A stretch of 64,000 nucleotides of DNA, from NCBI RefSeq assembly GCF_017377795.1, contig NZ_JAFRDR010000013.1:62001-126000 (forward strand), in the 5' to 3' direction. Below are positions 4,381 to 24,762 of the stretch, in pieces (the first letter of the stretch is position 1; each line of letters opens with the position of its first letter). The notes beneath the pieces are model-generated. The model saw only the letters and a program-made list of their open reading frames with translations. It was not told the DNA's origin and searched no databases. The DNA comes from Williamsia soli. GTDB lineage: Bacteria > Actinomycetota > Actinomycetes > Mycobacteriales > Mycobacteriaceae. A program made the position numbers and the translations under genes.

Positions 4381-4446
4381 GACAAGCCCTCCATATCGTG
4401 CGCAAGACCGGATGATGATGGGGCTGGGCCTTGCCGCTGCTGTGCA

Positions 4447-10702: not shown

Positions 10703-11869
10703 ATGACCGAGACAGTAATCGTCGACGCAGTTCGCACCCCGATCGCCACCGCCCGCAAAGGCACCCTGCGGGACACTTCCGCCGAGGTGCTCGCCACACA
10801 CATACTGGCGGAGGCCGTGCGCAGATCGGGCCTGCCATCCGAATCCATCGATGACGTCATCTTTGCCGAATCCCACTACGGTGGCGGTGATCTGGCGCGC
10901 TACGCGGCGGTCGCCAACGGTCTCGAACACATCCCCGGCCAGGCGGTCAACCGCTACTGCGCGGGCAGCTTGACCTCCGTCGCGAATGCCGCGGGCTCGA
11001 TCACCTCGGGTATGGACACCGTGATCATCGCCGGCGGTGTCAACACCAACTCCACGAGCCCACGGCCGGTCTGGCGTGTCATCGGTACCGAGGACACCGA
11101 AACCCGGTTACCGCCGACGTTCCCCTACCGTGAAGACGCCGCCGACGACACCAGCCTTTCCGTGGGTTGGAACATCGCGCAGAAGTACAACCTGTCCCGG
11201 GAGCAGATGGATGCCTGGGCGGTGCGATCCCACGAGCGTGCCGTGGCCGCCATCGATTCCGGTGTCTTCGACGACGAGATCGCGCCGATCAAGGTGACCC
11301 AGGGCGACGGCACCGTCGTCGAGTTCGCAGTAGACGAACATCCGCGACGGACAACGACTTTGGAGAAGGCCGCGCAAGTAAAGCCGATCCACCCGGAGAT
11401 CGAGGGCTTTTCGATCACCGCTGCCAACGCCAGCGGGGCCAACGACGCTGCCGCGGCGCTCACCCTCACCACGGCCGAGAACGCCTCCGCGCATGGATTG
11501 TCCTCGCTCGGAACTGTCAAGGCATGGGCGTCAGTCGGAGTCGACCCCAAGTTCACCGGCGACGGCAGCCTCGTCGTCATCCACAAACTCCTCAAACGGG
11601 CCGGGCTCAAGGCATCTGACATCACCCTGTGGGAGATCAACGAGGCGTTCGCGTCGGTACCTGTCTCGGTTTGTCAGGAACTCGGACTCGACGAGGACCT
11701 CGTCAACATCTACGGCAGCGGGTGCAGCCTCGGACACCCGATCGCCGCCAGCGGCGCGCGCATGCTGACCACGCTCTCGCATGAATTGCGCCGTCGCGGA
11801 GGCGGAATCGGCATTGCCGCGATGTGCGCGGGTGGCGGGCAGGGCGGCGCCGTACTCGTCCAGGTCTGA
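10703..11869 (+). CDS. Acetyl-CoA acetyltransferase (thiolase)
   Basis: 388-residue canonical thiolase. It has the acylated Cys in NRYCAGS, EINEAFA, the His motif GHPIAASGAR, and the second Cys in CAGGGQGG. All catalytic residues are kept, so it is likely an active degradative thiolase cleaving a 3-ketoacyl-CoA. The start ATG has a purine-rich RBS region (AAAGAGAAA). It lies 48 bases after the VOC gene and probably belongs to the MaoC operon. Confidence 0.92.
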   Translation: MTETVIVDAVRTPIATARKGTLRDTSAEVLATHILAEAVRRSGLPSESIDDVIFAESHYGGGDLARYAAVANGLEHIPGQAVNRYCAGSLTSVANAAGSITSGMDTVIIAGGVNTNSTSPRPVWRVIGTEDTETRLPPTFPYREDAADDTSLSVGWNIAQKYNLSREQMDAWAVRSHERAVAAIDSGVFDDEIAPIKVTQGDGTVVEFAVDEHPRRTTTLEKAAQVKPIHPEIEGFSITAANASGANDAAAALTLTTAENASAHGLSSLGTVKAWASVGVDPKFTGDGSLVVIHKLLKRAGLKASDITLWEINEAFASVPVSVCQELGLDEDLVNIYGSGCSLGHPIAASGARMLTTLSHELRRRGGGIGIAAMCAGGGQGGAVLVQV

Positions 11870-11898
11870 GCAAAAACCACCGATCGACAAGGAGAGTC

Positions 11899-12279
11899 AT
11901 GTCCACAGCGTTGCTGTTCGCCTGGTCCAGCCCCACCTCGCCCGAGGTCGACGCCGAGTTCAACAGGTGGTACGAGGACGTCCACGCCCCGCAGGTCAAG
12001 GCCGCCGTCGGTACCGAGGTCACCGTCACCCGGTACCGGTTCGAAGACCCCGCGGTCGACGGACAACCGCCGGTCCCCAAGTACCTCGCCGTCTACGAGA
12101 TCTCCGACACCGACGTGACCACCGCGCACGCCGCCCTGATGGCGGCGTTCAAGGGTGGCCGGTTCGACATGTCGCCGACCATCGATCGGAGCGCGGCAAG
12201 TATGGAATGGTATTCACCGCACAACCGGTCGTCATCCGAAAATTCACCTGCTCAACCGATCTCGACGAAGGGTCTCTGA
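11899..12279 (+). CDS. Small EthD/DUF4286-like ferredoxin-fold protein
   Basis: 126 residues. The motif EFNRWYEDVHAPQV near residues 18-31 is typical of small dimeric alpha/beta-barrel (EthD- or DUF4286-like) proteins found in catabolic clusters, whose exact role is rarely known. A clear paralogue with NSWYDEVHLPEV is at 58209-58541. ATG 11899 has AAGGAGAG upstream. It is followed 2 bases later by the DoxX gene. Confidence 0.7.
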   Translation: MSTALLFAWSSPTSPEVDAEFNRWYEDVHAPQVKAAVGTEVTVTRYRFEDPAVDGQPPVPKYLAVYEISDTDVTTAHAALMAAFKGGRFDMSPTIDRSAASMEWYSPHNRSSSENSPAQPISTKGL

Positions 12280-12281
12280 CT

Positions 12282-12794
12282 ATGCCGATCCTCCGCACCT
12301 CGCGGACCGACAACACCGCGGTGCAACTGTTGCTTCGTGCCGCCGTCGGCGGAACCATGATCGCCCACGGCGTCAAGCATGGACGTAGTATCGACGGCAC
12401 CGCAGGCTGGTTCGGCTCCATCGGCTTCAGACAACCCACACTGCAGGCCAAAGCCTCGGCTGTGGTGGAGGTCGGAGCGGGAGCAGCGATCGTCGCGGGC
12501 GCTGGTACACCGGTCGCTGCTGCCGCCGTGGTCGGGACGATGGCGGTTGCCGCGCGCTCAGTGCACCTGCCGAACGGATTCTTCATCACCTCCGAGGGCT
12601 GGGAGTACGTCAGCAATCTCGCGATCGCCGCCGTCGCACTGGCGAGCATGGGCCCGGGCCGCTGGAGTGTGGACCGGGCGCTCGGCCTCGACAACAAGTT
12701 GACCGGGAATCGAGCAGCCGCGCTGGCCGCCTGCGTGGGCCTGGCGGCCGCCGGCGCGCAACTGGCCGCGTTCCACCGACCGGCCGAGAAGTAG
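12282..12794 (+). CDS. DoxX-like integral membrane protein
   Basis: 170-residue membrane protein with about four hydrophobic segments. The early AVGGTMIAHGVKHGRSIDGTAGWFGSIGF and the following KASAVVEVGAGAAIVAG match the DoxX family. Function in catabolic clusters is uncertain; some DoxX proteins act with quinone-linked oxidation. It ends the plus-strand operon and converges with ctpC (3-base gap). Confidence 0.75.
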   Translation: MPILRTSRTDNTAVQLLLRAAVGGTMIAHGVKHGRSIDGTAGWFGSIGFRQPTLQAKASAVVEVGAGAAIVAGAGTPVAAAAVVGTMAVAARSVHLPNGFFITSEGWEYVSNLAIAAVALASMGPGRWSVDRALGLDNKLTGNRAAALAACVGLAAAGAQLAAFHRPAEK

Positions 12795-12797
12795 GCG

Positions 12798-14951
12798 CTA
12801 GTCCAGGCGGTAGCGAATCAGTCGTGAACTGTTGCCCACCACTGCGACCGATGATGCGTTGTGCAGCACTGCGGCGAGCACCGGTGACAGCGCGCCCCCG
12901 GCACCCACGATCAGACCGATCGCGTTCACGGCAATCGACATCGCATAGTTCTGCCTGATGACGTCCAGGGCGTGCCCACCGAGTTCCCGTAGATCGAGAA
13001 GCCGTCCCAACTCGTCGCCCGACAGCGCAACGTCGGCGGTCTCTACCGCCACGTCGGTGCCTGCGATACCCATTGCGATACCGATGTCGGCGGCGGCCAG
13101 CGCGGGTGCATCATTGGTGCCGTCGCCGACCATCGCCACGGTGTACCCCTGATCTTGCAGTTCCCGCACCATGGTCAGCTTGTCTTCCGGCAGCACCTCG
13201 GCCCGCCAGTCAGCGATTCCGAGTTCGGCGGCGACAGCACCCGCGGTTTTCGGGTGATCACCCGTGAGCATCACGATCCGGCGGACACCCGAACGCCGCA
13301 GCTCTGCAATCACTTTCACAGACTCAGGACGGACCTCATCGCGCAGGCTCACCAAGCCGACGAGTTCACCGTCGACGGCCAGCAGCAGCGGGGTCTCGGC
13401 GCGGTGCTGAAGTCGATCCACCCAAGCCAGGGCATCGGCAGTCAATTCGACGTCCTCGGACTCGAGTAACGGCTGATTGCCCAGCAGTAGTGTGCGGTCG
13501 CCCGCTACGGACCGCATGCCCATTCCCACGACCACCTCACACTGCTCGTGCGCAGGGATCTCGATGTGCCGTTCCTCGGTACTGCGGATGAGCGCCTCGG
13601 CGAGTGGATGCCGCGAATGGATCTCCGAGCTGGCTGAGAAGGCGAGAACTTGCTCCGGATTCCAATCATCGTGAAACGAAACAACATTGGTCACCACGGG
13701 CCGGCCCACCGTCAACGTGCCCGTCTTGTCGAACACGATCGCGTCCACGCGGCCGGCTTGTTCGAGGTGTGATCCGCCTTTGATGAGCATGCCTCGACGG
13801 GCTCCGTTGCCGATCGCAGCACTGATGGCGGTCGGCGTCGACAAGCCAACAGCGCACGGACAAGCCACGAGCAGCATTGTCATCGCGCGACGCACGTCGC
13901 GGGTCACCACCAGGGTCAGTGCCGCCAGTGCAAACGAGGCCGGCACAAAGCGGCGCGAGAAGTTCTCACCGACGGTCTGGATCTGACCACGATCATCCTG
14001 CGCCTGTTCAACTCTGGCGATGATGCGCCCCAACGCTGTTTCGCGGCCGACAGCACCGGCGCGCACGACGAGCCGCCCGCGCATGACCACCGAACCGGCG
14101 TACACGCGATCGCCGACATCGAGGGTGACCGGAAGATTCTCACCGGTGATCGCCGATTGGTCCACCACCGCTTCGCCTTCGCACACGACGCCGTCCACGG
14201 GAATGGCAACCTGTTCGTGCACGACGACTTCGTCGGCGATCTGCAGCGTGGCGATGTCGACAGACACCTCGGTGCCGTCCGGGCCTCTCACCCAGGCGGT
14301 GTCCTGGCTGCCGGCCAGCAGAGCCGAGATGGCCCGGCGGGTGCGCCGCAGGGTGAGGTCTTGCAGATACTCGCCGATATTCAACAGCCACAAGACGGTC
14401 AACGCGACAACGTTCTCCCGCAGCAGGAGGCTCGCGACGGTTGCGGCAGAGACCAGCGCATCGGTGCCGGCGGCTTTGCGACCACTGAGCGATCGCAGCG
14501 CACCCTTCAGGAAGGGGTAGCCGGTAAAAATCGTGACTCCGCCGGCCACCATGCGACTGGTCGGGCCCAACATGGGCGGTCGCCGAAACCCGTATCGGCG
14601 CACACCGAGTAGAACCAGTGCGGTACCGCCGACGGCCATCCGAAGAATGTCGCCGCTGCTCACCTCGGCAGAGTGTGGTGTTCTCTCGGCCACGGCTGTC
14701 GCCGGCACCTCGGCGCCTGACTGCACCGCGGCATCAAGCGCGGTCCTGTCGAGCCGCTCTGGGGAGTACCAGATCACAACGCTGCCGGTCCGTGGATAGG
14801 CGTGCACGGCGCGAACGCCCGCGACAACGCCGACGGCATCTTCGACCGCTACCGCCCGCGCCGCGCTGGCGATCAGCCACACCGCGGTCAGGCGCATCCG
14901 TCCGGCAGCATCAGATCGAACGATCAGCCGACTTCCGAGATCACCTGACAT
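12798..14951 (-). CDS. ctpC: P1B-type metal-exporting ATPase CtpC
   Basis: 717 residues, essentially the full length of M. tuberculosis CtpC (718), and recognisably similar along its whole length, including N-terminal SDAAGRMR and VHAYPRTGSVVIWYSP, and C-terminal NSSRLIRYRLD. Key motifs: TGEN (269-272, actuator), CPC in the sixth membrane helix (364-366), DKTGT (phosphorylated Asp, 408-412), RHPLAEAL, and GDGTNDAPAL. There is no CxxC metal-binding N-terminus, as in CtpC. In M. tuberculosis this pump protects against zinc poisoning and has also been linked to manganese metallation. It follows the pacL1-like gene by 60 bases. Confidence 0.94.
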   Translation of the reverse strand: MSGDLGSRLIVRSDAAGRMRLTAVWLIASAARAVAVEDAVGVVAGVRAVHAYPRTGSVVIWYSPERLDRTALDAAVQSGAEVPATAVAERTPHSAEVSSGDILRMAVGGTALVLLGVRRYGFRRPPMLGPTSRMVAGGVTIFTGYPFLKGALRSLSGRKAAGTDALVSAATVASLLLRENVVALTVLWLLNIGEYLQDLTLRRTRRAISALLAGSQDTAWVRGPDGTEVSVDIATLQIADEVVVHEQVAIPVDGVVCEGEAVVDQSAITGENLPVTLDVGDRVYAGSVVMRGRLVVRAGAVGRETALGRIIARVEQAQDDRGQIQTVGENFSRRFVPASFALAALTLVVTRDVRRAMTMLLVACPCAVGLSTPTAISAAIGNGARRGMLIKGGSHLEQAGRVDAIVFDKTGTLTVGRPVVTNVVSFHDDWNPEQVLAFSASSEIHSRHPLAEALIRSTEERHIEIPAHEQCEVVVGMGMRSVAGDRTLLLGNQPLLESEDVELTADALAWVDRLQHRAETPLLLAVDGELVGLVSLRDEVRPESVKVIAELRRSGVRRIVMLTGDHPKTAGAVAAELGIADWRAEVLPEDKLTMVRELQDQGYTVAMVGDGTNDAPALAAADIGIAMGIAGTDVAVETADVALSGDELGRLLDLRELGGHALDVIRQNYAMSIAVNAIGLIVGAGGALSPVLAAVLHNASSVAVVGNSSRLIRYRLD

Positions 14952-15011
14952 GACAGTCGCAGGCGCTTGATGGGTGCAGCTCGGGTTCCGCGACGTGCGA
15001 GGGCGCAGTCA

Positions 15012-15290
15012 TCAGTGGTCGTGATCGTGTACCGGAGTGGCCACCGGCGGGGTCACCTGCTCGCCCATCCTCTCCTTGGCTTCGGCGATCACGTCGGCCG
15101 CGGCCAGACGTGCTGTTTCAGCCTGCTCTTCGGCCTTGCGCGCACCGCGCAGCGACCACGCCGTTGCGGTGACCGCGGCCTCACGCAGCGGTGCGCGTTT
15201 CACCAGTTCCTTGGCCCCGTTGTAGGCGGCGACCCCTACCACGCCCGTCAGCACGGTCGACGCTGCTTTTCCGAGTATTGCTCCGAACAC
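15012..15290 (-). CDS. PacL1-like (DUF1490) metallochaperone/scaffold for CtpC
   Basis: 92 residues with a short hydrophobic N-terminus (LGKAASTVLTGVVGVAAYNGAKELVKRAPLREAAV), a charged helix (EEQAETARLAAADVIAEAKERMGE) and a C-terminal metal-binding tail VHDHDH. This is the layout of Rv3269/PacL1, which in M. tuberculosis binds zinc through a C-terminal Asp/His motif and stabilises CtpC in the membrane. Gene order pacL-ctpC is the same. The start is GTG at 15290. Its promoter shares the 49-base intergenic region, and so the Fur/Zur-like box, with the divergent sagB gene. Confidence 0.87.
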   Translation of the reverse strand: MFGAILGKAASTVLTGVVGVAAYNGAKELVKRAPLREAAVTATAWSLRGARKAEEQAETARLAAADVIAEAKERMGEQVTPPVATPVHDHDH

Positions 15291-15310
15291 CGTGGACCAC
15301 CTCTCCGATA

Positions 15311-15339
15311 TCGAAAATGATTGTCGTTAGACTACACCT
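15311..15339 (+). promoter_or_regulatory. Fur/Zur-like box and leaderless promoter of sagB
   Basis: The palindrome CGAAAATGATTGTCG (15312-15326) matches 12 of 15 positions of the Zur-type consensus TGAAAATGATTTTCA. Immediately after it, TAGACT (15328-15333) fits a TANNNT -10 hexamer. Six bases later the A of the sagB ATG (15340) would be the transcription start, so the mRNA would be leaderless; no RBS is visible. A metal-loaded repressor on this box would block the polymerase. The box could also affect the divergent pacL1-ctpC promoter. Confidence 0.6.
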
Positions 15340-16080
15340 ATGACGCATACGGTGGCCGATCGATTCGATCGAGTCCGGGCCATCCATCACGCGCTGACCG
15401 ATACCGGTCCCGAGCCGTTGCGCTCCGTTCACCTGAGCGATGCCGCCGAGACGCTGACTCTTCGGCCGCCTACCCGCGAACCGGCAATGCCACTTCATGC
15501 AGCGCTCGACGACCGCCGATCACGGTACGACTATGCCCCACTCGACCACGAAGATCTGTCGGCGCTACTGCGGTGGGCACTGGGTCCACAGCGCACACTG
15601 CCCACCGCCGGCGGCGGCCATCGAATGAGCATGCATCCCAGTGCCGGAGGGCTAGCGTCCACGACCGCGTTCCCCATTGTGTTGCGCCACATCGACGGGA
15701 TCGCCGAGGGGGTGTATCAGTTCGACCGTGACGCTCACCAGTTGCTACGACGCCGAGAGGGTGATGTGCGGGGCGCGCTCACCCGATGTCTCGTGCAGCC
15801 CGAGTTCGCCGAGCGCACACCGGTCATCATCGTCATAGTCGGCGAGCTGGAGGCGACGCTGGTGAAGTACTCCGAACGGCACTACCGCACGCTGCATGTC
15901 GATGCCGGACTCGCCGTGGCCAACCTGTATCTCGTGGCCACGGCTCTCGACCTCGCGTGTTGCGCGATTTCCGGGTTCTACGACGACCAGCTCGCCGAGA
16001 CTTTGTCCCTGAGCGAAAGCCAGATACCGCTAGTCGCCTTTGCCGTGGGTGCTCGCCGTCAGGTCCGCGAGCAGCGGTAG
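15340..16080 (+). CDS. SagB-type azoline dehydrogenase (FMN nitroreductase fold)
   Basis: 246-residue SagB-type member of the nitroreductase superfamily. RRSRYDY (59-65) and HPSAGGL (99-105) form the FMN-binding elements. KYSERHYR (K176, Y177) matches the Lys-Tyr pair needed for azoline oxidation in characterised homologues, followed by DAGLAVANLYLVATALDLACCAISGF. Such enzymes oxidise thiazoline/oxazoline rings made by a YcaO cyclodehydratase to azoles. The gene converges on the MFS-YcaO operon and its last 51 bases overlap the end of the MFS gene. It has its own Fur/Zur-like box. Confidence 0.88.
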   Translation: MTHTVADRFDRVRAIHHALTDTGPEPLRSVHLSDAAETLTLRPPTREPAMPLHAALDDRRSRYDYAPLDHEDLSALLRWALGPQRTLPTAGGGHRMSMHPSAGGLASTTAFPIVLRHIDGIAEGVYQFDRDAHQLLRRREGDVRGALTRCLVQPEFAERTPVIIVIVGELEATLVKYSERHYRTLHVDAGLAVANLYLVATALDLACCAISGFYDDQLAETLSLSESQIPLVAFAVGARRQVREQR

Positions 16081-17256
16081 ACGCCCCACCCCCGAGTACC
16101 ACCCAGCCGCGGCCGCGGTCACCAGCACCAACGAACCTGCCGATACAGCCACCCCCACTCCGGCGACCTGCGCGAGGGCGCCCCCCAACGCTGCCCCGAA
16201 CGGGGTACCCCCCATGGCGATCATCCGCGCCGTGGTGTTCACCCTCGACTGCAGCTCGTCGGGTGTGATCGATTGCCGCACAACGATCCCATTGATGATG
16301 ACCATCGTGTTCGCGGCCTGGTACACCACGAGGACAAGCAGAGAGATCACCAACCAGGTTGTCTGCGCCCAGAGAGCCATCGCACCCGCAGCCACAGCGA
16401 TACCGACGAGGGTGATCTTGCCGGTGACGACCGTTCGTTGGATTTTCGCGCTGACGAGGCTGATCAGAAACGCGCCCAGGGCTGTCGCCGCGTACAGGGC
16501 ACCGAGCCGTGCGTCGTCGTCCTGGAGCCCCAACCTCTCGACACCGACCACCACCATCAGCCCGACCACCACTCCGTTGGCCAGGCTCACACCGATACCC
16601 ACGAGCGTGAGCGCGCGGACCGCCGGCTGGGTCCAGATGTAGTGCAGCCCTTCGTTGATCTGTCGAAGCAGTCGCTGCCCGTCGACCACTCCCCCGGCGT
16701 TCGCGGGGATCGGGATGGTTGCGGTGACGGCAGCCGCGGTCAGGTAGCAGGCGGCGTCGATGGCGATGGCGCCGGCAGGGGTGAGCGCGGTGGCGGCCAC
16801 ACCGCCGAGCACCGGTCCGGCGATACCGATGACGGTGCCCACTGACACCAGTGTTCCGGTGGCGTCGGCGATCTTCTCTCGGCCCACCAATGCGGGCACG
16901 ACGCCGAACGAGGCGGCATCGTAGAAGACGAACAGGGTGGACACCACAAAGGCCACCGCAACCGCGTGTGGGATCGAGACGGTCCCCACCGCGCTGGCGA
17001 GGGGAATGCTGGCCAGCGCGGCGGCGCTGAGTGTTTGCGCGGCCAGCAGGATCGTCTTGCGGTCGATGCGGTCGGCAACCGCCCCCGCCAATAGTCCGAA
17101 CAGCAAGTACGGGAGTGACTCCACGGCGAAGGTGACTCCGGACAGCAGCGCTGACTCACTGCGTTGATAGACCAGAAGTGGAAGTGCCACCACTGTGACC
17201 GCGTTACCCGCCCAGCAGATGGCCCGCGCGAGGACAAGTGTTCGGAACGGGTTCAC
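16030..17256 (-). CDS. MFS exporter of the RiPP cluster (EntS-like MFS_3 type)
   Basis: 408-residue 12-helix major facilitator protein. GAVADRIDRKT after helix 2 is the MFS motif A. The overall pattern (NPFRTLVLARAICWAGNAVTVVALPLLVYQRS) matches the MFS_3 branch, which includes the enterobactin exporter EntS. The open frame runs to 17595, but GTG at 17256 overlaps the YcaO stop (GTGA) and puts the N-terminus just before helix 1, so I choose it. It is the last gene of the RiPP operon and probably exports the mature peptide. Its 3' end overlaps sagB by 51 bases, tail to tail. Confidence 0.85.
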   Translation of the reverse strand: MNPFRTLVLARAICWAGNAVTVVALPLLVYQRSESALLSGVTFAVESLPYLLFGLLAGAVADRIDRKTILLAAQTLSAAALASIPLASAVGTVSIPHAVAVAFVVSTLFVFYDAASFGVVPALVGREKIADATGTLVSVGTVIGIAGPVLGGVAATALTPAGAIAIDAACYLTAAAVTATIPIPANAGGVVDGQRLLRQINEGLHYIWTQPAVRALTLVGIGVSLANGVVVGLMVVVGVERLGLQDDDARLGALYAATALGAFLISLVSAKIQRTVVTGKITLVGIAVAAGAMALWAQTTWLVISLLVLVVYQAANTMVIINGIVVRQSITPDELQSRVNTTARMIAMGGTPFGAALGGALAQVAGVGVAVSAGSLVLVTAAAAGWYSGVGRLPLLADLTASTHGKGD

Positions 17257-18614
17257 AGGCTCGGCGGCGGCACCAGGAGTAGCGAATCCGGATGATCCGG
17301 GTCCGCGCCGGTCCCCGCCGTCTGTGCCACATCCCTCCAGCGGGCGAGCCCGAAGTAGGGAAATGCCGCCGGCGCGTTGGGGATCAGGCCGCCGGCACAC
17401 ACCCGCGCGACACGAAGTGGTGTCAAGGCGATGTCCGGGGTGGTGATGTCGCAGACGACGATGTCGTGGCCACCGGCTCTCAGTCGCGTCTTCACTGTGG
17501 CCATGTCCCCGGTCGGCAACTCGCCGATGTCCACGGTCTGCGCGGGCTCGGTGAACCGCGGGAGTAACGCTTCGTGCGTGCGGGGGTCGAGCCATACCTG
17601 GGCTTGCGCGCCGAGGTCCCGGATGTGTTCGCTCCGTGCGCCGGCGGCGTCGAGGTAACTGCGGTCTGCTCGGTGATCGAGGTAGAGGCCGCGCGAGAGC
17701 ACCCCGGCGTCCATGGAACCGAACACCCAGCCGTGGGGCTCGAGCAGGCCACGGGTGAAGACCCAGCTGTGGATCGCTTCAAGGACCGCCTTGCGAGCAG
17801 TCTGGGCCGGATCGAGTTTGGCGGAGAATCCTCCTGCCACGATGCCCAATTCGGGGTCATGGACCACCGCAGCCACCACCGGCACCCCGAAGTAGGAGGG
17901 CAGTTCCAACAAGTGACACTGCAACCGGGTGTCACCGAGATCGTCGAGCAAACCCGGAACACTACGGAGGTCGATGCCGCGAGCGGGCAGGTTCAGGTGC
18001 CACCACAGCGAGAGCGCGTCGCGTTCGATCAGCTCCAGCAACCCGCGCGACGCCGCATCGACGAGACCGGCGCCGGTCGCGATGCCGGCGTAGTTGAGGT
18101 GGTGCAACCACGGTTCACGCCTGCGGCGGCCGGTCCGCCAGTTGAGGTAGACCAACGACGCCGGAACCAGCGTCGGTCGTCCGTCATCGCCGATCCCCTC
18201 GCACCAGGCGATCGAGGTGTCGTGAGTGAATTGTTCGAACGGGAATCCGGGCGTGTCGTACTGCCAGGACGCAAAGAAGTTCAACTCCTGCGGTCCGACG
18301 TGCCGGATGCCTTCGGCGCCCAACGTCCGGGGTGTCGCGCGTAGAAGGTGTCCGGGCACGTAGTTGCCACAGTAGCGTTCGACAGCCTCCCCGATCGCCG
18401 CGATCCGGGCACCGGCGCCATCGCCGAATGTTGTTCCCAGCGAGACCAGGTCGCTGGGCCAGTTACCGTGCGTTCTGGTGTCGGCGATCTCCGCCGTCAA
18501 TCCGATGTACCGCTCCGGCAGAGCATCGAGCCTTTGCACCGGATGCACGGCGCGGATGATGCCGGCATACGGATCGACGAGATCGTCTGCGGACAGCAAG
18601 CCGGACGCGTTCAT
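17253..18614 (-). CDS. YcaO-domain cyclodehydratase (azoline-forming type)
   Basis: 453-residue stand-alone YcaO protein. Expected ATP/Mg-binding acidic motifs are GEAVERY (75-81), ELIERDA (194-200) and KAVLEA (275-280). GIATGAGLVDAASRG precedes the second motif as in the family. The C-terminus ends VPPPSL; a proline-rich end is typical of azoline-forming YcaO enzymes and helps form the active site. They use ATP to cyclise Cys, Ser or Thr side chains onto the preceding peptide carbonyl. As the candidate precursor lacks Cys, the rings would be (methyl)oxazolines. Overlaps the hydrolase gene upstream and the MFS gene downstream by 4 bases each. Confidence 0.9.
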   Translation of the reverse strand: MNASGLLSADDLVDPYAGIIRAVHPVQRLDALPERYIGLTAEIADTRTHGNWPSDLVSLGTTFGDGAGARIAAIGEAVERYCGNYVPGHLLRATPRTLGAEGIRHVGPQELNFFASWQYDTPGFPFEQFTHDTSIAWCEGIGDDGRPTLVPASLVYLNWRTGRRRREPWLHHLNYAGIATGAGLVDAASRGLLELIERDALSLWWHLNLPARGIDLRSVPGLLDDLGDTRLQCHLLELPSYFGVPVVAAVVHDPELGIVAGGFSAKLDPAQTARKAVLEAIHSWVFTRGLLEPHGWVFGSMDAGVLSRGLYLDHRADRSYLDAAGARSEHIRDLGAQAQVWLDPRTHEALLPRFTEPAQTVDIGELPTGDMATVKTRLRAGGHDIVVCDITTPDIALTPLRVARVCAGGLIPNAPAAFPYFGLARWRDVAQTAGTGADPDHPDSLLLVPPPSL

Positions 18615-19954
18615 GCGGGGAGTTCCACACGCACGCCGGTGATGTCGCGCTCGGCGATCTGCATGGCCGTTCCGGTGAGTTGGTCTTCACCGCTCTGCAA
18701 GTCGCGTGCGTGACGTGGAAACGAGTGCGCCGAGATGATCACTGCCATGGATTCTCCTGGGTCGAGGTGGACCGATAGTGGGGTCAAGCGAACCGCTCGA
18801 TGTGGGGACAGCCCGTGCGCAACCTGTTCGAGCCGACCATCGCGGCGTCGGATAGCCAGCAGCGCGGCCCAATCAGCGTCCTCGACTGCGGAATTGATGT
18901 GCACCGTGGGCGTCCCGATCATCGAGGTGGCCGGAGCCGCGAAGTCCAGGACAAGGAGGTCGGGCCTCGCCGCGACCGCTCGCAGGTCGTCGCCCGGTGG
19001 AATCGAGGGGAAGGGGTCGGCGGGGTCGCTGACAAAACGGCCGCCGGGCAGGTCGACTCGCTGGGTTGCACTGGGCCACCGATTCAGTTCCACCAGATCA
19101 CCTCGCTGACCGTACATCTGCCCACCTGTCCCGGGCCTGCCTGCGAGCACTCCGTCAATCCATTGCGTCATGTGCTGGGCGCGGGCCGATCGGTACAGGC
19201 GGTGGTCCCACGGGCCCATGACGAGAGCGGCAGGTCCACCCCACGAGGTCCAGAGGTCGATGGTGTCCTGTGCGAACCAGTCGTAGGTGCCGCCGATGGC
19301 CAGCAGCGGGCACGACAATGCCGAAACATTGTCGGCGCGTTCTGTATCGGTGCGTACTGCCCTGATGACGTGGTCCCAGTACGCGATAGGTGGATGAACT
19401 CTGTGTCCTATCCGGGCTACCGGCAGGGTACTGAGTGCACCATCGGGGATGGCGCCACCCGGCGATCGGGTTCGGTCCCCGTGTTCGAGCCACCACCCCA
19501 CACGAGACTCGAGGTAAAAGGCGCCATCGACATTGCGTGCGGTCTCGCCAAGACCCAAAGCCGGGACGGCGACCGACACACCGCCGACGGCGTCCATACC
19601 GGCGTCGGACGCAGCGATCGTCGACTCCACGGCGCAGTGAGCGCCATAGGATGTGCCGTACATGATCACCGGCGCACTGCACCAGGATTGATGCGCAACC
19701 CATTCCAGCGTCGCCAGACCGTCGGCGCCCTCGTTCTCGTAGGGACGAAATGCGCCTGAGGATTGGTAGCGACCGCGGACATCTTGGGTCACCACAGCCA
19801 TACCGCGGCGAGCCCACTGAAGGGCTTCAGGCATGTGGGCGTGCACATCGTAGGGCGTGCGGACAATCAGCACCGCCCGCGGCGCCGTATCCGGGAGCAC
19901 GACCACGGTGTGCAGTCCGTAGATGGAAACGACCTCTGTGATCAGCGGCGTCAC
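18611..19954 (-). CDS. CocE/NonD (S15-like) alpha/beta hydrolase in RiPP cluster
   Basis: 447 residues of the CocE/NonD, X-Pro dipeptidyl-peptidase-like hydrolase family. TPYD and DVRGRYQSSGAF are family marks. The Ser nucleophile is S102 in GTSYG (100-104), with likely acid Asp in GGTYDWF and His in GPWDHR. A C-terminal jelly-roll domain is suggested from about residue 300 on. Members cleave acyl bonds, including peptide bonds after Pro or small residues. Between the E1-like and YcaO genes, with 4-base overlaps on both sides, it is a candidate for removing the leader or trimming the peptide. An esterase or tailoring role is also possible. Confidence 0.8.
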   Translation of the reverse strand: MTPLITEVVSIYGLHTVVVLPDTAPRAVLIVRTPYDVHAHMPEALQWARRGMAVVTQDVRGRYQSSGAFRPYENEGADGLATLEWVAHQSWCSAPVIMYGTSYGAHCAVESTIAASDAGMDAVGGVSVAVPALGLGETARNVDGAFYLESRVGWWLEHGDRTRSPGGAIPDGALSTLPVARIGHRVHPPIAYWDHVIRAVRTDTERADNVSALSCPLLAIGGTYDWFAQDTIDLWTSWGGPAALVMGPWDHRLYRSARAQHMTQWIDGVLAGRPGTGGQMYGQRGDLVELNRWPSATQRVDLPGGRFVSDPADPFPSIPPGDDLRAVAARPDLLVLDFAAPATSMIGTPTVHINSAVEDADWAALLAIRRRDGRLEQVAHGLSPHRAVRLTPLSVHLDPGESMAVIISAHSFPRHARDLQSGEDQLTGTAMQIAERDITGVRVELPA

Positions 19955-20646
19955 TGCGGCGCAACAGGTATCGGAAGTACAGGGTGACGCGACACTGTCA
20001 GGGATCGCAAATCCACCGCGGTCAACAAATAGTGCGAGCGCCGCGGGGGCGAGCTGGTTCGATCGGCGATCTCGGCCACGATCGCCTCAGCGATCGCCTC
20101 TGCCGCCCGATCCGACACCGGGTGCAGCGACGAGTCGATACGGCGTCCTGCGTCGACGGGCCGAAAGCGCGGTTGCATGCGGTCGCGGTGTGCGGTGCAT
20201 GCTCGCCGTCGCCGCAGTACGTCGACGACATCGACGGCGCGTGGGGTGATCACCTGCGTGATGCCGTCTCGGTAGCTGGCGAGGTCGACCTCGCCGATGT
20301 CGCGGGGAACCGCTTCGTCATCACTGAGATGACACACGAACTCTCCTCGGTCAGCACTAACGCTTCTGCGTCCCAGCAACATCGAGGTTGCGGCCGCGAC
20401 CTTTCCCTGGCCCCGGACGTCGACGAGAGGTACGGCGGGTACCGCGGTGACATGACCGGCGTCGATCAATGCGCTCAACGCTGCAGACGCAGTGGGCGAT
20501 GCGGGTACAGCACCCCCGGCAAGTACCTCGAAGAGCTGCTCGATGTCGGCCGGGGGCAGCGTCAGCTCGAAGTGTTCATCGTCGGCGGTGCGCAGCACGT
20601 AACCCTGGCGCGCTTGGTAGATCGACGTATTGGGGGAAAGCTGCAC
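19951..20646 (-). CDS. Short E1-like (TOMM cyclodehydratase partner) protein
   Basis: 231 residues, with no strong family match I can name with certainty. The N-terminus (IYQARQGYVLRTADDEHFELTLPPADIEQLFEVL) resembles the leader-binding start of E1-like/ocin-ThiF partners of YcaO. The end (LTAVDLRSLTVSRHPVLPIPVAPQ) resembles the C-terminus of such proteins, but the Cys residues that normally bind zinc there are missing. At 231 residues it is much shorter than usual E1-like partners (350 or more), so most of the ThiF fold is absent. GTG start at 20646 with a purine-rich RBS (AAGAAGCGAGA). Probable role: bring the precursor to YcaO. Confidence 0.6.
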   Translation of the reverse strand: MQLSPNTSIYQARQGYVLRTADDEHFELTLPPADIEQLFEVLAGGAVPASPTASAALSALIDAGHVTAVPAVPLVDVRGQGKVAAATSMLLGRRSVSADRGEFVCHLSDDEAVPRDIGEVDLASYRDGITQVITPRAVDVVDVLRRRRACTAHRDRMQPRFRPVDAGRRIDSSLHPVSDRAAEAIAEAIVAEIADRTSSPPRRSHYLLTAVDLRSLTVSRHPVLPIPVAPQ

Positions 20647-20673
20647 GATCTCGCTTCTTGTTCGGGCCTGCGT

Positions 20674-20700
20674 GCCACCCGGAAGTGTTGCCCGGGTGGC
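20674..20700 (-). terminator. Hairpin between precursor and E1-like gene (attenuator-like)
   Basis: A perfect 9-bp stem, GCCACCCGG and CCGGGTGGC, encloses a 9-base loop. It lies after the precursor stop and before the E1-like start. There is no T-run, so it is more likely a partial terminator or mRNA 3'-end stabiliser. Such a hairpin would let the cell make much more precursor than enzymes, as in many RiPP operons. Confidence 0.6.
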
Positions 20701-20738
20701 ACGCGGGTCAGTGATGCCTCAAATGATCCGGAGACCTA

Positions 20739-20861
20739 TCAGTCCTCGGTGTCCTGGGCGTCGTCGAACGGGTTCTCCACCAGCGCGTTGCTGTGGCCCG
20801 CGGAGTGGGTCGCCAAACCGACCGGCGCCTGGATCGAACGGAAGAACTCATTGTCGTTCAT
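20739..20861 (-). CDS. Candidate RiPP precursor peptide (40 residues)
   Basis: A 40-codon gene with a strong RBS (AAGGAG, 5 bases before ATG). The N-terminal half (residues 1-16, beginning MNDNEFFRSIQAPVGL) would be the leader. It is followed by THSAGHSN (18-25), with one Thr, two Ser and two His in eight residues, and then an acidic tail rich in Asp/Glu (29-40). There is no Cys, so a YcaO enzyme could only form oxazoline-type rings. His next to such rings is a plausible metal site. It lies upstream of the E1-like/hydrolase/YcaO/MFS operon on the same strand, behind its own promoter with a Fur/Zur-like box. It is shorter than common gene-finder cut-offs. Where leader ends and core begins is unknown; the acidic tail could be a follower. 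Confidence 0.75.
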   Translation of the reverse strand: MNDNEFFRSIQAPVGLATHSAGHSNALVENPFDDAQDTED

Positions 20862-20908
20862 GAATCTCCTTTTATTCGAGATGTATTCGCCCTGGAGAGG
20901 CGAACTGA

Positions 20909-20928
20909 ATGCCCGATTGAGCGGGCAT
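20909..20928 (-). promoter_or_regulatory. Small hairpin at the start of the precursor mRNA
   Basis: A 7-bp stem (ATGCCCG/CGGGCAT) with a 6-base loop falls at or just after the predicted transcription start of the precursor gene, about 50-70 bases before its ATG. It might stabilise the mRNA 5' end, or terminate read-through from the fecB gene upstream. Confidence 0.4.
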
Positions 20929-20932
20929 CACC

Positions 20933-20961
20933 ACCGTAGGCTAAATGACAATCGTTTTCAA
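20933..20961 (-). promoter_or_regulatory. Promoter of the RiPP operon with Fur/Zur-like box
   Basis: On the minus strand TTGAAA (20956-20961) and TACGGT (20933-20938) are separated by 17 bases, a good -35/-10 pair. The palindrome TGAAAACGATTGTCA (20946-20960) overlaps the -35 and spacer and matches 13 of 15 positions of the Zur-type consensus. Repression by a metal-loaded Fur-family protein would be steric. Confidence 0.65.
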
Positions 20962-20992
20962 TAGGTGGACCTGCGGCGCACCCTTATCGCCC

Positions 20993-21943
20993 TCATGCCG
21001 TGTTGAGTTCGGCGGTCACCGCATCGAGCACGATGCCCAGGGAGATGGTTCCACGCCCCGTTGCCCACACACTGGCCTCGACCTCCACGACACGATCGTT
21101 CTGCGCCGCCGAAATGGAGGGCCAGACCGGGTTGGCGGCAAGTCGCGCCGACAGCGGTTCGGTGTCTTCCCCTGATGAAAATGCCTGGGCGAAGATGACA
21201 TCGGGGTTCACTGCCGCAATCTGCTCCACCGACACTGTCGCGAAAGCGTCGGTGCCGGCCTGCCATGGGTAATTGCTGACCTCGGCGAGCAATGACCCGA
21301 CCGGAGTCTGGACGGAGTCGACTCCGAGGCTGCCGGGCTCCCCATACATCGACAGGGTGGTCACGTCACTTCGGTTTTGCTGTGCGTTCTCGACGCGGTC
21401 GATGAACCGTTGTGCGGCGACGTCGGCTTGGGCCTGCCTACCTGTCAACTGGCCCACCGTGCGCAAGAACTCGACCGAGTCCCGCCACGAGGTCGGGTTC
21501 ACCAGGTACAGCGGCGCGGATTCGGTGACCGCTCCACGCAACCCGTCCTGGACACCACCGAGCCCGATGACCAGGTCGGGTTGCGCCAAGGCGATGTCTT
21601 CGACATTCTCTTCGCCAAAACCGCCCGTGATCTGGCGCATCTGCGTGTCGGGACCGAAGAACCGGTCGTCGACTGCCAGGTCCTCGCGGTATGCCACCGG
21701 AACGATCCCGACTTCTTTCAGTGCGTCGACGCACATCATCGTCAGGCACGCGATGCGCTCGGCCGGGGCGTCGAGCGTCACCGTGGTGCCCGTCGAGTCG
21801 GTGACGGTGATCGCGTCGGCGGGCGACGCCTCGTCCTCGCCACTGCAGGCCACAGCGGAGGCAAGCAGCGCCAGCGCCGACGCGGTCACGGCAAGCCGAC
21901 GAGTCCTCGTTGGCAGGCCAGATAGACGGGTGAACTTGCGCAT
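20993..21943 (-). CDS. FecB-type periplasmic-binding lipoprotein (metal or metallophore uptake)
   Basis: 316-residue class III substrate-binding protein. A signal peptide with a lipobox-like end (SAVAC) is followed by the ITVTDSTGTTVTLDAPAERIACL start typical of FecB/BtuF-like proteins. LAQPDLVIGLG and AVNPDVIFAQAF are the paired lobe motifs. The frame is open to 22516, but ATG 21943 has GGGAG 6 bases upstream and gives a proper signal peptide. It is divergent from the permease genes, with a Fur-type box in the 31-base gap. Likely ligand: a chelated metal or siderophore-like compound, possibly the local RiPP product. Confidence 0.87.
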   Translation of the reverse strand: MRKFTRLSGLPTRTRRLAVTASALALLASAVACSGEDEASPADAITVTDSTGTTVTLDAPAERIACLTMMCVDALKEVGIVPVAYREDLAVDDRFFGPDTQMRQITGGFGEENVEDIALAQPDLVIGLGGVQDGLRGAVTESAPLYLVNPTSWRDSVEFLRTVGQLTGRQAQADVAAQRFIDRVENAQQNRSDVTTLSMYGEPGSLGVDSVQTPVGSLLAEVSNYPWQAGTDAFATVSVEQIAAVNPDVIFAQAFSSGEDTEPLSARLAANPVWPSISAAQNDRVVEVEASVWATGRGTISLGIVLDAVTAELNTA

Positions 21944-21973
21944 TCGATCTCCCTTACAGATGATGTTATGCGA

Positions 21974-21986
21974 AATGATAACCATT
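21974..21986. promoter_or_regulatory. Fur/Zur-type box between fecB and permease genes
   Basis: AATGATAACCATT is a near-perfect palindrome, differing at one position from the classical Fur core AATGATAATCATT. It lies at the divergent start of fecB and the first permease gene, over the likely fecB promoter (TAACAT as -10). This gives the importer the same kind of control as the RiPP genes. Confidence 0.6.
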
Positions 21987-22997
21987 GCCACTAACTTGCG
22001 GAGTAGGCCACCCGATCGGCGGCTCATGGGCCTCCTGCTTCTCGGTTCGGCAATGGTGGCCGGTGTTGTCGTCACCGCCCTGTGCGCGGGTGACCCCGCA
22101 CTGACACCCGCGCAGGCGATGTCGGCACTGTTTGACGCCGCCGATCCGCTGCACCGCAATGTCGCCGATTCTCGCCTGCCCCGAGCAGTGCTCGGTGCAC
22201 TGTGTGGCGCGGCGCTCGCCCTGGCCGGCATTTTGATGCAGGACGCGATGCAAAACCGCATAGCCGGGCCCGAACTGCTGGGCGTGTCCTCGGGTGCGGC
22301 CGTTGTGCTGACAGCGGTTACCGTGCTCGCGGTTCCGATTGCGCTGCACCAACTCCCGTACGTGGCACTCGTCGGTGCCGGCACGGCGGGCGCAATTGTC
22401 GTGACCGCGGTGGGCACCACGCACGATCCCACCCGCATGCTGTTGATCGGCGCGGCTGTGACTGCGCTGGCCTCTGGACTGGTCATCACGTTGGTGAGCT
22501 TGGGCACCGAGGGCAATCTGCCGCTGTTGTTCCGCTACCTACTCGGCAGTCTCAGCGAGCGCGGATGGCCCCACGTGCGCGTCGTGGCGCCGTGGCTCGC
22601 CGTCGCGATTCCTGTGGCACTGCTGCTGCGACATCGGGTGGCAGCGCTGTCACTCGGCGACGATGTCGCAGCGGGACTGGGCGTCAGCGTCCGTTGGACA
22701 CGACTGTGCGCTCTGGTGTGCGCCGGTGTCCTTGCGGCGGTCGTGGCCTCGGTGTGCGGCCCGGTCGCCTATGTCGCTCTGCTCGCACCCCACCTGTGCC
22801 GGTGGGCGCTGCGCACCACCAGCGCGCGCAGGGTCTTCTGGCTCACCCCGGTGGCGGGCGCGGCGCTCTTGGCGGGGGCTGACCTGATCTCTCGAATCGC
22901 TCTGTACCCCATCGAGATACCCGTTGGCATCACCACCACGCTGATCGGCGTTCCGGCGTTGTTGCTTTCGCTACATCGTCAGGACTCGGCGACGTGA
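21975..22997 (+). CDS. FecCD-type ABC permease, first subunit
   Basis: About 340 residues, a BtuC/FecCD-family permease with eight to ten hydrophobic segments. NRIAGPELLGVSSGAAVVL is the conserved periplasmic/membrane motif, and ALLAPHLCRWAL is the ATPase-contacting region. The start is uncertain: ATG 21975 keeps the usual basic stretch (NLRSRPPDRR) before helix 1 but would lie within the Fur-type box (leaderless); ATG 22026 is the alternative. It overlaps the second permease gene by GTGA. Confidence 0.87.
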   Translation: MITIATNLRSRPPDRRLMGLLLLGSAMVAGVVVTALCAGDPALTPAQAMSALFDAADPLHRNVADSRLPRAVLGALCGAALALAGILMQDAMQNRIAGPELLGVSSGAAVVLTAVTVLAVPIALHQLPYVALVGAGTAGAIVVTAVGTTHDPTRMLLIGAAVTALASGLVITLVSLGTEGNLPLLFRYLLGSLSERGWPHVRVVAPWLAVAIPVALLLRHRVAALSLGDDVAAGLGVSVRWTRLCALVCAGVLAAVVASVCGPVAYVALLAPHLCRWALRTTSARRVFWLTPVAGAALLAGADLISRIALYPIEIPVGITTTLIGVPALLLSLHRQDSAT

Positions 22998-23974
22998 GAC
23001 GCTCGTGCGCCCTGCTGATCGGAGGCGTCGCTGTTCTCTGCGGGCTGATCGTGGCGCACCTGCTCATCGGCCGGTCCGAACTCGGTGCCGCCGACACCCT
23101 GCGGGTCCTGACCGGCTCCAGCGACGTACGGGCACATCAAGTCATTGTGCTCAAGTACCGGTTGCCCCGCGTCCTCGTCGGCATCGGCGCAGGCGCACTG
23201 CTCGCACTCTCCGGCGCTCTGCTGCAAGCCGTCATCGGCAACCCGCTCGCCGAGCCCGGTACCACTGGCGTCGGAGCGGGCGCAGCGTTGGCAGTCGTGT
23301 TGTCTCTCATCGCCTTTCCCGGCCGCGAGGTCGCCGCGGCGGCCTCACTCATCGGTGCGGTCGTCGCTGGAGGACTTCTCTATCTGATCGGCCGGCGTTC
23401 GCTGGCGGTGGCCGGAATCCTGCTGGGCGCCGTTCTGGGCGCCGTCACGTCGTTGCTGCTGGTGGTCGATTCGCAGCCCATGGGCGTGGTACTGCGCTGG
23501 CTCGTCGGATCACTCAACGCACGCACCCCGTCGGACTGGAATGCGCTGTGGCCCTGGTTGCTGATGCTGGGGTTCGCTGCGCTGCTCGCAACCTCGCGCG
23601 TCAATGTCCTTGCGCTCGGCGAGACCACCGCAACTGGCCTGGGGCTTCCGGCCACCCGCGCACGGTTCGTGCTGCTGATGATCGCGGTACTCGCGGCGGC
23701 AGCCGCCGTCACCGCGACAGGCGCGGTGGCATTCATCGGTTTGATGGCACCACATCTCGCGCGCGTCCTGGCCGGCGGCGACTACCGCGAGTTGATACCC
23801 GTCAGCATGCTCCTCGGCGCCATCGGATTATCGGCGGCAGACCTTCTCGCGTTCAGCATCACGCTCGACCTGCCAGGGAGCGGCCCCTCCGTCACAGGTG
23901 TGCCGGTCGGCGCGGTGACTGCGTTACTCGGAGCCCCGTATCTGATCTGGCTCGTACGAAAGGACCGACGATGA
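22994..23974 (+). CDS. FecCD-type ABC permease, second subunit
   Basis: 326-residue permease of the same family. VIGNPLAEPGTTGVGAGAALAV is the family motif, GAVAFIGLMAPHLARVLAG the ATPase-coupling region, and FSITLDLPGSGPSVTGVPVGAVTALLGAPYLIWLV the typical C-terminus. GTG start at 22994, overlapping the stop of the first permease; its own end overlaps the ATPase gene (ATGA). The two permeases would form a heterodimer. Confidence 0.92.
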   Translation: MRRSCALLIGGVAVLCGLIVAHLLIGRSELGAADTLRVLTGSSDVRAHQVIVLKYRLPRVLVGIGAGALLALSGALLQAVIGNPLAEPGTTGVGAGAALAVVLSLIAFPGREVAAAASLIGAVVAGGLLYLIGRRSLAVAGILLGAVLGAVTSLLLVVDSQPMGVVLRWLVGSLNARTPSDWNALWPWLLMLGFAALLATSRVNVLALGETTATGLGLPATRARFVLLMIAVLAAAAAVTATGAVAFIGLMAPHLARVLAGGDYRELIPVSMLLGAIGLSAADLLAFSITLDLPGSGPSVTGVPVGAVTALLGAPYLIWLVRKDRR

Positions 23975-24762
23975 CCGAGAATCCGCCCCTGTTGGAAGGA
24001 CTCGATCTCGAGCTGGGTTACACCGGTCGGCGTCGGCCAGTCATCGACGGTCTCGAGGTGCAGATCGCCCCGGGCACCGCCACCGCACTGGTGGGGCCGA
24101 ACGGTTCGGGCAAGTCGACCCTGTTGATGGCGCTCGCGCGAGTGCTCACCCCCCGCCGCGGCCGGGTACGACTGAACGGAATCCCCCTCTCGACCCGCAA
24201 GTCGATCGAGGTGGCCCGAGAACTGGCCATCCTTCCGCAGGCATCGGTCGTACCGGCCGGTTTGAGGGTCCGTGAACTTGTCGAACAAGGCCGATACCCA
24301 CGCCTGGGGCCGCTCGCCATGCTCAGCCGACACGATGACGATGTGATGGCGCGGGCGATGACGATGGCAGGAGTCGCGCCCCTGGCCGACCGCCGACTCG
24401 ACACATTGTCGGGAGGCGAGCGACAACGGGCATGGATCGCGATGGCACTGGCTCAAGACACCGACATCCTGCTACTCGACGAACCAACCACCTATCTCGA
24501 CATCCGCCATCAGATCGACCTCATGGAACTGGTCGTCGAACTCGTTGGCACACACGACAAAACCGTCGTCATGGTCCTGCACGACATCAACCAGGCAGCT
24601 CGCTACTGCGACCGCATCATCGCGATGCGCGAGGGAGCCATCGTCGCGGATGGTCACCCCGACGAGGTCGTGACCACCGACCTGCTGCACACCGTGTTCG
24701 ACGTCCGTGCGCGGATCAGCCGCGACCCGGTGTCCGGTCGCCCGATGTTCACAGCGGAATGA
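23971..24762 (+). CDS. FecE-type ABC transporter ATPase
   Basis: 263 residues with Walker A GPNGSGKST, Q-loop LPQAS, signature LSGGERQRAWIAMALAQ, Walker B DILLLDEPTTYLD and the H-loop His in VLHDINQAARY. This matches iron-siderophore/cobalamin-type importer ATPases (FecE/FhuC). It completes the importer. The gene converges with nmtR after 43 bases. Confidence 0.93.
   Translation: MTENPPLLEGLDLELGYTGRRRPVIDGLEVQIAPGTATALVGPNGSGKSTLLMALARVLTPRRGRVRLNGIPLSTRKSIEVARELAILPQASVVPAGLRVRELVEQGRYPRLGPLAMLSRHDDDVMARAMTMAGVAPLADRRLDTLSGGERQRAWIAMALAQDTDILLLDEPTTYLDIRHQIDLMELVVELVGTHDKTVVMVLHDINQAARYCDRIIAMREGAIVADGHPDEVVTTDLLHTVFDVRARISRDPVSGRPMFTAE

What the first reader, a model, noticed from the sequence alone, without database searches (positions are those of the whole stretch)
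15291..21943. Putative metal-regulated azole RiPP (TOMM) locus embedded among metal transporters
A YcaO cyclodehydratase with proline-rich C-terminus, a SagB-type dehydrogenase with the catalytic Lys-Tyr pair, a shortened E1-like partner, a CocE/NonD hydrolase, an EntS-like MFS exporter and a 40-residue precursor lie in one place. Next to them is a complete FecBCDE-type importer, and pacL1-ctpC and nmtR-ctpJ flank the whole block. Palindromes like Fur/Zur boxes stand at the sagB, precursor and importer promoters. A ribosomal, oxazol(in)e-bearing metallophore for zinc or another metal, made under starvation and recaptured by the importer, would explain all parts. I know of no described system with exactly this composition.
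Basis: partly seen in the sequence, partly recalled or inferred. Interest (0 to 1): 0.93.

Follow-up and report, generated by a model that had tools for sequence, protein, structure and literature searches.

The report
Zinc-controlled streptamidine-type peptide gene cluster
This locus is a streptamidine-family peptide gene cluster whose three promoters each carry a DNA box matching known binding sites of the zinc-sensing repressor Zur, so it is predicted to switch on in zinc shortage and would make a small exported and re-imported peptide that likely helps the cell gather zinc.

Summary
The genes are as described. The cluster is not undescribed: the 40-aa precursor scores above cut-off for NCBIfam 'streptamidine family RiPP' (54.6 bits, cut-off 40), and FecBCDE + AmiA/B/C/D/E is the published ami cluster (PMC8442711). 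The predicted core THSAGH aligns with streptamidine's HLSATH, so an N-terminal amidine rather than azoles is expected; an MFS exporter replaces two ABC exporters. New here: a matrix built only from published C. glutamicum Zur sites finds exactly three sites of 18 bits or more in 64 kb, at the sagB, precursor and fecB/fecC promoters (0.055 expected). They score like this genome's own znuA, cobW, rpmB2 and smtB-zur boxes. The box is present at 38 of 40 non-identical precursor genes (19 of 3110 control windows); the six other FecCD-type loci of this genome that I examined lack it. The family is therefore very probably part of the Zur zinc-starvation response, a likely clue to streptamidine's unknown role. 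Zincophore function is inferred; published tests of streptamidine found no metal binding and no starvation phenotype.

The parts
15309..15329 (.). Zur box at the sagB promoter (TATCGAAAATGATTGTCGTTA), between the divergent pacL1-like gene and sagB
   Evidence: 23.9 bits with the published-site matrix; 0 mismatches to the mycobacterial Zur consensus of PMC7174638
15340..16080 (+). SagB/AmiE-type FMN dehydrogenase
   Evidence: TIGR03605 122.9 bits
16030..17256 (-). MFS exporter (in place of AmiT1/T2 ABC exporters)
   Evidence: PF05977/PF07690 over cut-off; best NCBIfam hits 2A0121 and EntS, both under their cut-offs
17253..18614 (-). YcaO cyclodehydratase, AmiD
   Evidence: PF02624 164 bits; only YcaO match in the genome
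18611..19954 (-). CocE/NonD (S15) hydrolase, AmiC, predicted leader protease
   Evidence: PF02129, TIGR00976 over cut-off
19951..20646 (-). E1-like partner, AmiB
   Evidence: TIGR03882 22.3 bits, below cut-off; position and partial conservation
20739..20861 (-). precursor peptide AmiA, 40 aa, predicted core THSAGH before SNALVENPF
   Evidence: NF040714 streptamidine 54.6 bits, cut-off 40; core alignment
20943..20963 (.). Zur box of the precursor operon promoter (TATTGAAAACGATTGTCATTT on - strand)
   Evidence: 30.2 bits, best of the window; box present at 38 of 40 non-identical amiA genes
20993..21943 (-). FecB/AmiF1 substrate-binding protein with invariant CLxxxCxD (Cys66, Cys71)
   Evidence: PF01497; both Cys and Asp in 30 of 30 loci aligned
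21973..21993 (.). Zur box between fecB and fecCDE (AAATGATAACCATTGCCACTA)
   Evidence: 23.1 bits; resembles the genome's znuA box TAATGATAACCGTTACCGACA
21975..22997 (+). FecC permease (an alternative start at 22026 would keep the box outside the gene)
   Evidence: PF01032 243.6 bits
22994..23974 (+). FecD permease
   Evidence: FecCD-type NCBIfam matches, all under their cut-offs; PF01032 over cut-off
23971..24762 (+). FecE ATPase
   Evidence: FecE model 305.7 bits, under its cut-off of 375

Best explanation
It is a streptamidine-family (ami) RiPP cluster with Zur-type boxes at all three promoters, so zinc-loaded Zur is predicted to repress it and zinc starvation to switch it on, when it would make, export and re-import a two-histidine amidine peptide that likely scavenges zinc. 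Shown: gene content, family membership of the precursor, and the boxes with their conservation. Predicted steps: AmiB/AmiD (E1-like + YcaO) activate the backbone of the THSAGH core; AmiC frees the core's N-terminus; the Thr1 amine closes on the His2 carbonyl to a six-membered amidine, with Ser3 and the SagB enzyme assisting as proposed for streptamidine; the MFS protein exports the product; FecBCDE takes it (or its zinc complex) back. The dehydrated core would be m/z 591.263 [M+H]+. Zur control I hold at about 0.9, the zincophore step at about 0.45.
For: Precursor over the NF040714 cut-off. Gene set equals the published essential set amiA-E + amiF1-4. The matrix from four C. glutamicum Zur sites (PMC2823685) gives 23.9, 30.2 and 23.1 bits at the three promoters and nothing else at 18 or more in 64 kb. 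Own-genome Zur targets score alike: znuA 23.0, cobW 23.3, rpmB2 20.5, smtB-zur 22.8; the fur-catalase pairs give 11.3 and none at 10 or more. As a positive control, 23 of 30 znuA-like and 17 of 17 cobW-like loci of relatives hold a site of 17 or more (best in the whole 3-4 kb locus). 38 of 40 non-identical amiA genes have a box of 17 or more; 0 of 500 permuted matrices reach the observed mean. Six other FecCD-type loci of this genome reach at most 9.1 bits. No IdeR box in the ami promoters (8 mismatches, as background). The genome's Zur is closest to PDB 3mwm and 2o03. All 44 cores counted have two His. FecB has CLxxxCxD in 30 of 30 loci, not in the five best solved homologues.
Against: Purified streptamidine bound no tested metal, zinc included, and a streptamidine-null S. 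albidoflavus grew like wild type under metal starvation (PMC8442711). Deleting amiF1-F4 abolished production there, odd for a mere re-importer. The precursor box is missing in one of three copies of genome G081 (L151, 0.7) and weak in L186 (15.2). Importer boxes are not general: 13 of 20 loci gave no FecB hit and show no strong box beside their FecC/D/E hits. The second ZnuA-type operon of this genome (L043) has no strong box either (13.3). The cluster is patchy: 6 of 9 genomes of the genus, 9 of 397 of the order, 19 of 394 of the class, own genome included in each. No binding or expression data.
Confidence: 0.6

Rival explanations
1. Zur-controlled, but the peptide is not a chelator: it is a zinc-starvation signal whose re-import by FecBCDE reports on neighbours or on its own level and tunes the response.
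For: Same Zur evidence. Published streptamidine binds no metal and has no antibacterial activity, its authors suggest signalling or development, and production needs amiF1-F4.
Against: Between sagB and fecE the window holds no regulator gene that could read such a signal; two His kept in all 44 cores hint at a metal.
Confidence: 0.2
2. The importer is the working part: FecBCDE takes up zinc or another metal complex directly through the CLxxxCxD binding protein, and the peptide is an accessory or shunt.
For: Invariant Cys pair and Asp in FecB (30 of 30); importer under its own Zur box here.
Against: The peptide genes are co-conserved with the importer and have the best-scoring box; nearest solved relatives are mostly siderophore or iron-complex binders by name.
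Confidence: 0.12
3. An iron (or other metal) siderophore-like system controlled by Fur or IdeR, as the Fec names suggest.
For: FecBCDE and siderophore-binding homologues.
Against: No IdeR box; the two other Fur proteins sit by catalase genes with no strong box; six other FecCD-type loci of this genome lack the Zur box, four of them with IdeR-like sites at 5-6 mismatches within 4 kb.
Confidence: 0.05
4. One reading: Ser/Thr rings oxidised by SagB to oxazoles.
For: YcaO, E1-like and SagB present.
Against: Core aligns with streptamidine's amidine core; no Cys; Lys of the Lys-Tyr pair kept in only 8 of 17 other loci; streptamidine carries no azole.
Confidence: 0.05

Closest known systems
Streptamidine ami cluster of Streptomyces albidoflavus J1074 (PMC8442711)
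   Same: AmiA precursor family, E1-like AmiB, hydrolase AmiC, YcaO AmiD, dehydrogenase AmiE, FecBCDE AmiF1-4
   Different: Core THSAGH instead of HLSATH, MFS exporter instead of AmiT1/T2, sagB and fecCDE on the strand opposite to the precursor operon, KY rather than HY in the dehydrogenase; Zur boxes are described here, not in that text
Actinobacterial Zur regulons (C. glutamicum PMC2823685, two sections and passages; S. coelicolor PMC5472717, C. diphtheriae PMC6711530 and M. smegmatis PMC7174638, passages)
   Same: 21-bp palindrome; znuA, cobW, ribosomal paralogue and smtB-zur targets also have it in this genome
   Different: No RiPP cluster is named among the targets in the parts I saw
Coelibactin-type zincophores of Streptomyces (start of the abstract of PMC3430247 in a listing; Zur control recalled)
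   Same: Predicted secreted peptide for zinc in actinobacteria
   Different: Non-ribosomally made, not from a gene-encoded precursor
Klebsazolicin and bottromycin (as described in PMC8442711)
   Same: YcaO-made amidine rings
   Different: They also carry azole or thiazoline rings; no zinc link is given there

Membership tests
Streptamidine-family RiPP cluster | Precursor of the NF040714 family (ALV motif) | tested here: met
   54.6 bits against cut-off 40; SNALVENPF present
Streptamidine-family RiPP cluster | Stand-alone YcaO next to the precursor | tested here: met
   PF02624 164 bits; 49-54% identical to the YcaO beside HxSAxH-type precursors and 67-68% to that beside other THSAGH precursors
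Streptamidine-family RiPP cluster | AmiB (E1-like with RRE) | tested here: inconclusive
   TIGR03882 22.3 bits, below cut-off 36.9
Streptamidine-family RiPP cluster | Hydrolase AmiC, dehydrogenase AmiE, FecBCDE (the last two not in every published subtype) | tested here: met
Streptamidine-family RiPP cluster | Amidine-containing product | not testable with these tools
   needs mass spectrometry and NMR
Published major ami layout (a subset, not the family) | ABC exporters AmiT1/T2 | tested here: not met
   MFS protein at 16030-17256 instead; deletion of AmiT lowered but did not abolish production in PMC8442711
Zur regulon | 21-bp Zur box at the promoter | tested here: met
Zur regulon | A Zur protein in the genome | tested here: met
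   Fur-family gene after an smtB-like gene on C20, closest to PDB 3mwm and 2o03
Zur regulon | Zinc-dependent repression | not testable with these tools
   needs EMSA and RT-qPCR
Metallophore system | Product binds the metal | not testable with these tools
   published negative for streptamidine (PMC8442711)
Classical azole TOMM | Ser/Thr/Cys-rich core | tested here: not met
   No Cys; core THSAGH

The most novel reading that the evidence does not exclude
The streptamidine family is a ribosomally made zincophore system of Actinobacteria under Zur control: a six-residue two-histidine amidine core, or a larger oxidised form of which streptamidine is a fragment, is secreted in zinc starvation and brought back by a cysteine-bearing FecB-type receptor.
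Probability: 0.4. Interest if true: 0.87.

Novelty: new variant of a known kind. Interest (0 to 1): 0.7.

Why it matters
Streptamidine clusters were found in over 230 species, yet the paper that described them left the role unknown and tested metals without success. Zur boxes at 38 of 40 precursor genes examined say when the cluster is probably on (zinc starvation), which metal to test first, and perhaps why ordinary growth showed nothing. If the peptide carries zinc it would be a ribosomal counterpart of non-ribosomal zincophores.

Tried and rejected
Iron control: a scan with the recalled IdeR/DtxR consensus gave only background matches. Control by the two catalase-linked Fur proteins: best site 11.3, or none at 10 or more. 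Flanking pumps as part of the system: no hit in the 16 loci; exceptions are ctpC-pacL beside sagB in L197 and nmtR/ctpJ-like hits near the distant locus L153. Pattern TGANAATNATTNTCA with up to 2 mismatches in the whole genome: 52 places against 6 for the reversed pattern; many may be chance, so I used the matrix instead, which could not be run genome-wide. The protein search with the precursor found only five near relatives, so the NCBIfam profile was used. A tblastn in plasmids gave one good relative, pNit. Structure prediction was not used.

Rows dropped and results that weaken the case. L011, L012, L014 and L017 were left out of the 40-gene count because no motif-A core was found; they carry boxes of 21.6-27.0 bits, in L011 94 bp before a weak precursor-like hit. 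L142 and L189 were dropped as duplicates; 'non-identical' still leaves close pairs such as L003/L004 and L134/L135. L153 is counted though its cluster looks degenerate: a stop in the profile match and no YcaO hit. Importer boxes: 6 of the 7 loci with a FecB hit and 3 of 6 have one within about 250 bp (my reading of the maps); the other 13 of 20 loci have no FecB hit. A sagB box is seen in L002-L005, not at sagB in the other eight motif-A loci. Permuted matrices are skewed because some resemble the motif: sites of 17 or more are 37, 35 and 15 observed against means of 0.83, 0.92 and 0.12, but maxima of 21, 31 and 9 over 200 permutations. In one search, 1 of 300 random pieces of the window had 0 mismatches to the mycobacterial consensus (the score of the sagB box itself), the rest 4 or more.
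Full report
What is there. All genes of the finding are present. From left: a DUF1490 (PacL1-like) gene and P-type ATPase (12798-15290, -), sagB (15340-16080, +), then on the minus strand MFS, YcaO, CocE/S15 hydrolase, E1-like protein and a 40-codon precursor (16030-20861), FecB (20993-21943, -), FecCDE (to 24762, +), an ArsR gene and a second P-type ATPase. The genome has one YcaO match.

Which family. The precursor MNDNEFFRSIQAPVGLATHSAGHSNALVENPFDDAQDTED matches NCBIfam NF040714 'streptamidine family RiPP' with 54.6 bits (cut-off 40). I read parts 1-4 of 5 of the streptamidine paper, that is all but the end of its reference list (PMC8442711). Its major cluster type has FecBCDE (amiF1-4), amiA, amiB, amiC hydrolase, amiD YcaO, amiE dehydrogenase and ABC exporters amiT1/2; deleting amiA-E or amiF1-4 abolished production. 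The window has these except AmiT, which an MFS protein replaces. The statement that no such system is described is therefore wrong. The paper also proposed metal import because of fecBCDE, and found neither metal binding (CAS; LC-MS with Fe, Co, Cu, Mg, Mn, Ni, Zn) nor a starvation phenotype.

Predicted product. Aligned without gaps on SNALVENPF, the core HLSATH of relatives (streptamidine's core by the paper) falls on THSAGH here. Ser3, Ala4 and His6 are kept. Over 40 non-identical precursor genes (44 cores, since four genes hold two) the cores are THSAGH 12, HLSASH 11, HLSATH 10, HNSASH 5, THSATH 2, HASATH 2, HDSASH 1, HLPASH 1: each with two His. The dehydrated THSAGH would be m/z 591.263; the same sum gives 647.326 for HLSATH, as published for streptamidine. 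Amidine formation here is inferred from the family.

The boxes. I built a 21-position matrix from four published C. glutamicum Zur sites only (PMC2823685, two sections and passages). In the 64-kb window it finds three sites of 18 bits or more: 15309-15329 (23.9), 20943-20963 (30.2), 21973-21993 (23.1); symmetrically permuted matrices give 0.055. By the consensus made from M. tuberculosis-type sites (PMC7174638, passages) they have 0, 1 and 2 mismatches; znuA, cobW/rpmB2 and smtB-zur of this genome have 1, 2 and 2; the two fur-catalase pairs have 6 and 7. S. coelicolor's ChIP-chip motif tGaNNatSatNNtCa (PMC5472717, passages) has the same 7-1-7 core. Genes were found by Pfam; smtB and the catalases are my reading of translations. 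Their boxes score znuA 23.0, cobW 23.3, rpmB2 20.5, smtB-zur 22.8. The second ZnuA-type operon (L043) has only 13.3. In relatives 23 of 30 znuA-like and 17 of 17 cobW-like loci hold a site of 17 or more. The Zur protein is closest to PDB 3mwm and 2o03, recalled as S. coelicolor Zur and M. tuberculosis FurB.

Controls. Six 4-kb stretches upstream of the other FecCD-type genes of this genome (L176-L181) score at most 9.1, so the box is not a mark of Fec importers in general; four of them have IdeR-like sites at 5-6 mismatches, weak evidence in 4 kb. No IdeR box at the ami promoters (8 mismatches, as background). The sagB box also lies between sagB and the divergent pacL1-ctpC pair, so Zur could touch that pair too (inferred).

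Conservation; 33 of 34 precursor upstream windows (some duplicates) have a site of 18.5 or more; mean best 24.3 bits against 6.8 for permuted matrices, 0 of 500 as high; 38 of 40 non-identical precursor genes have a site of 17 or more; 19 of 3110 control windows do. Misses: L151 (0.7) and L186 (15.2). Named carriers include Williamsia, Rhodococcus, Nocardioides, Pimelobacter and Modestobacter and the annotated amiA on R. rhodochrous plasmid pNit (core HLSATH, box 24.6). A locus with the published gene order and the HLSATH core has it (L135). The four more distant loci without a motif-A core have boxes too (21.6-27.0). All 12 motif-A loci have a fecB/fecC box of 17 or more, but elsewhere importer boxes are less regular: 6 of 7 loci with a FecB hit and 3 of 6, while 13 of 20 loci gave no FecB hit and no strong box beside FecC/D/E. 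A sagB box is seen in L002-L005, L196 and L197 only.

Architecture. On the minus strand the precursor box covers TTGAAA, which with TACGGT 17 bases on looks like a promoter (my reading), so bound Zur would block it. FecB has CLxxxCxD in 30 of 30 aligned loci (residues 66 and 71), absent from the five best solved homologues and from four other FecB-like frames, some partial, near other FecCD genes of this genome. The pair could hold the ligand or be a disulfide.

Distribution. 19 of 394 genomes of the class sample, 9 of 397 of the order and 6 of 9 of the genus, own genome included: accessory, not core.

In print. 'Streptamidine' is held by 12 papers, of which I read one. Searches joining it or YcaO/RiPP/zincophore with Zur or zinc (several lists capped at 10-20 rows) showed none that links this family to Zur; no listed paper held all of streptamidine, Zur and zinc. 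The library lacks most subscription journals and preprints, and regulon databases were not searched.

Mechanism and odds. Zur control about 0.9, by sequence. Zincophore about 0.45: exporter, importer, two His and Zur point to it, while the published metal tests point away unless the true product is another form, or other zinc uptake masked the phenotype. The strongest rival is a zinc-starvation signal.

Noticed in passing
window 15290-15340: The sagB Zur box lies between sagB and the divergent PacL1-like/CtpC-like pair; Zur could also act on that efflux pair, as S. coelicolor Zur activates zitB (PMC5472717).
   Followed up: partly
window 11781-12794: ORF with a weak match to HvfX, a Cu-binding RiPP maturation family (46.5 bits, cut-off 80); probably just a DoxX-like membrane protein (guess).
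   Followed up: no
L149, L150, L151 (G081): Genome G081 has three copies of one precursor; two have the Zur box, the third does not.
   Followed up: partly
L153 (G384): Distant locus with core HLPASH, a stop inside the weak profile match, a strong box (23.0) but no YcaO hit; nmtR/ctpJ-like hits about 4 kb away. Looks like a decayed cluster.
   Followed up: no
L144 6342-6362, L197 4371-4391, L017 2327-2347: Further strong Zur boxes (28.0, 31.5, 34.5 bits) near ami clusters, target genes not identified.
   Followed up: no
L004: Record titled Kitasatospora arboriphila carries an ami locus nearly identical to that of Williamsia muralis L003; the record name is doubtful.
   Followed up: no
L043 (own genome, C11:198500-207500): A second ZnuA-type ABC operon has no strong Zur box (13.3); it may serve another metal.
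   Followed up: no
window 290-4467 and 33688-57076: Surroundings hold MlaE-type permeases, P450, thiolase and ChsH2-like genes, suggesting steroid or lipid catabolism.
   Followed up: partly
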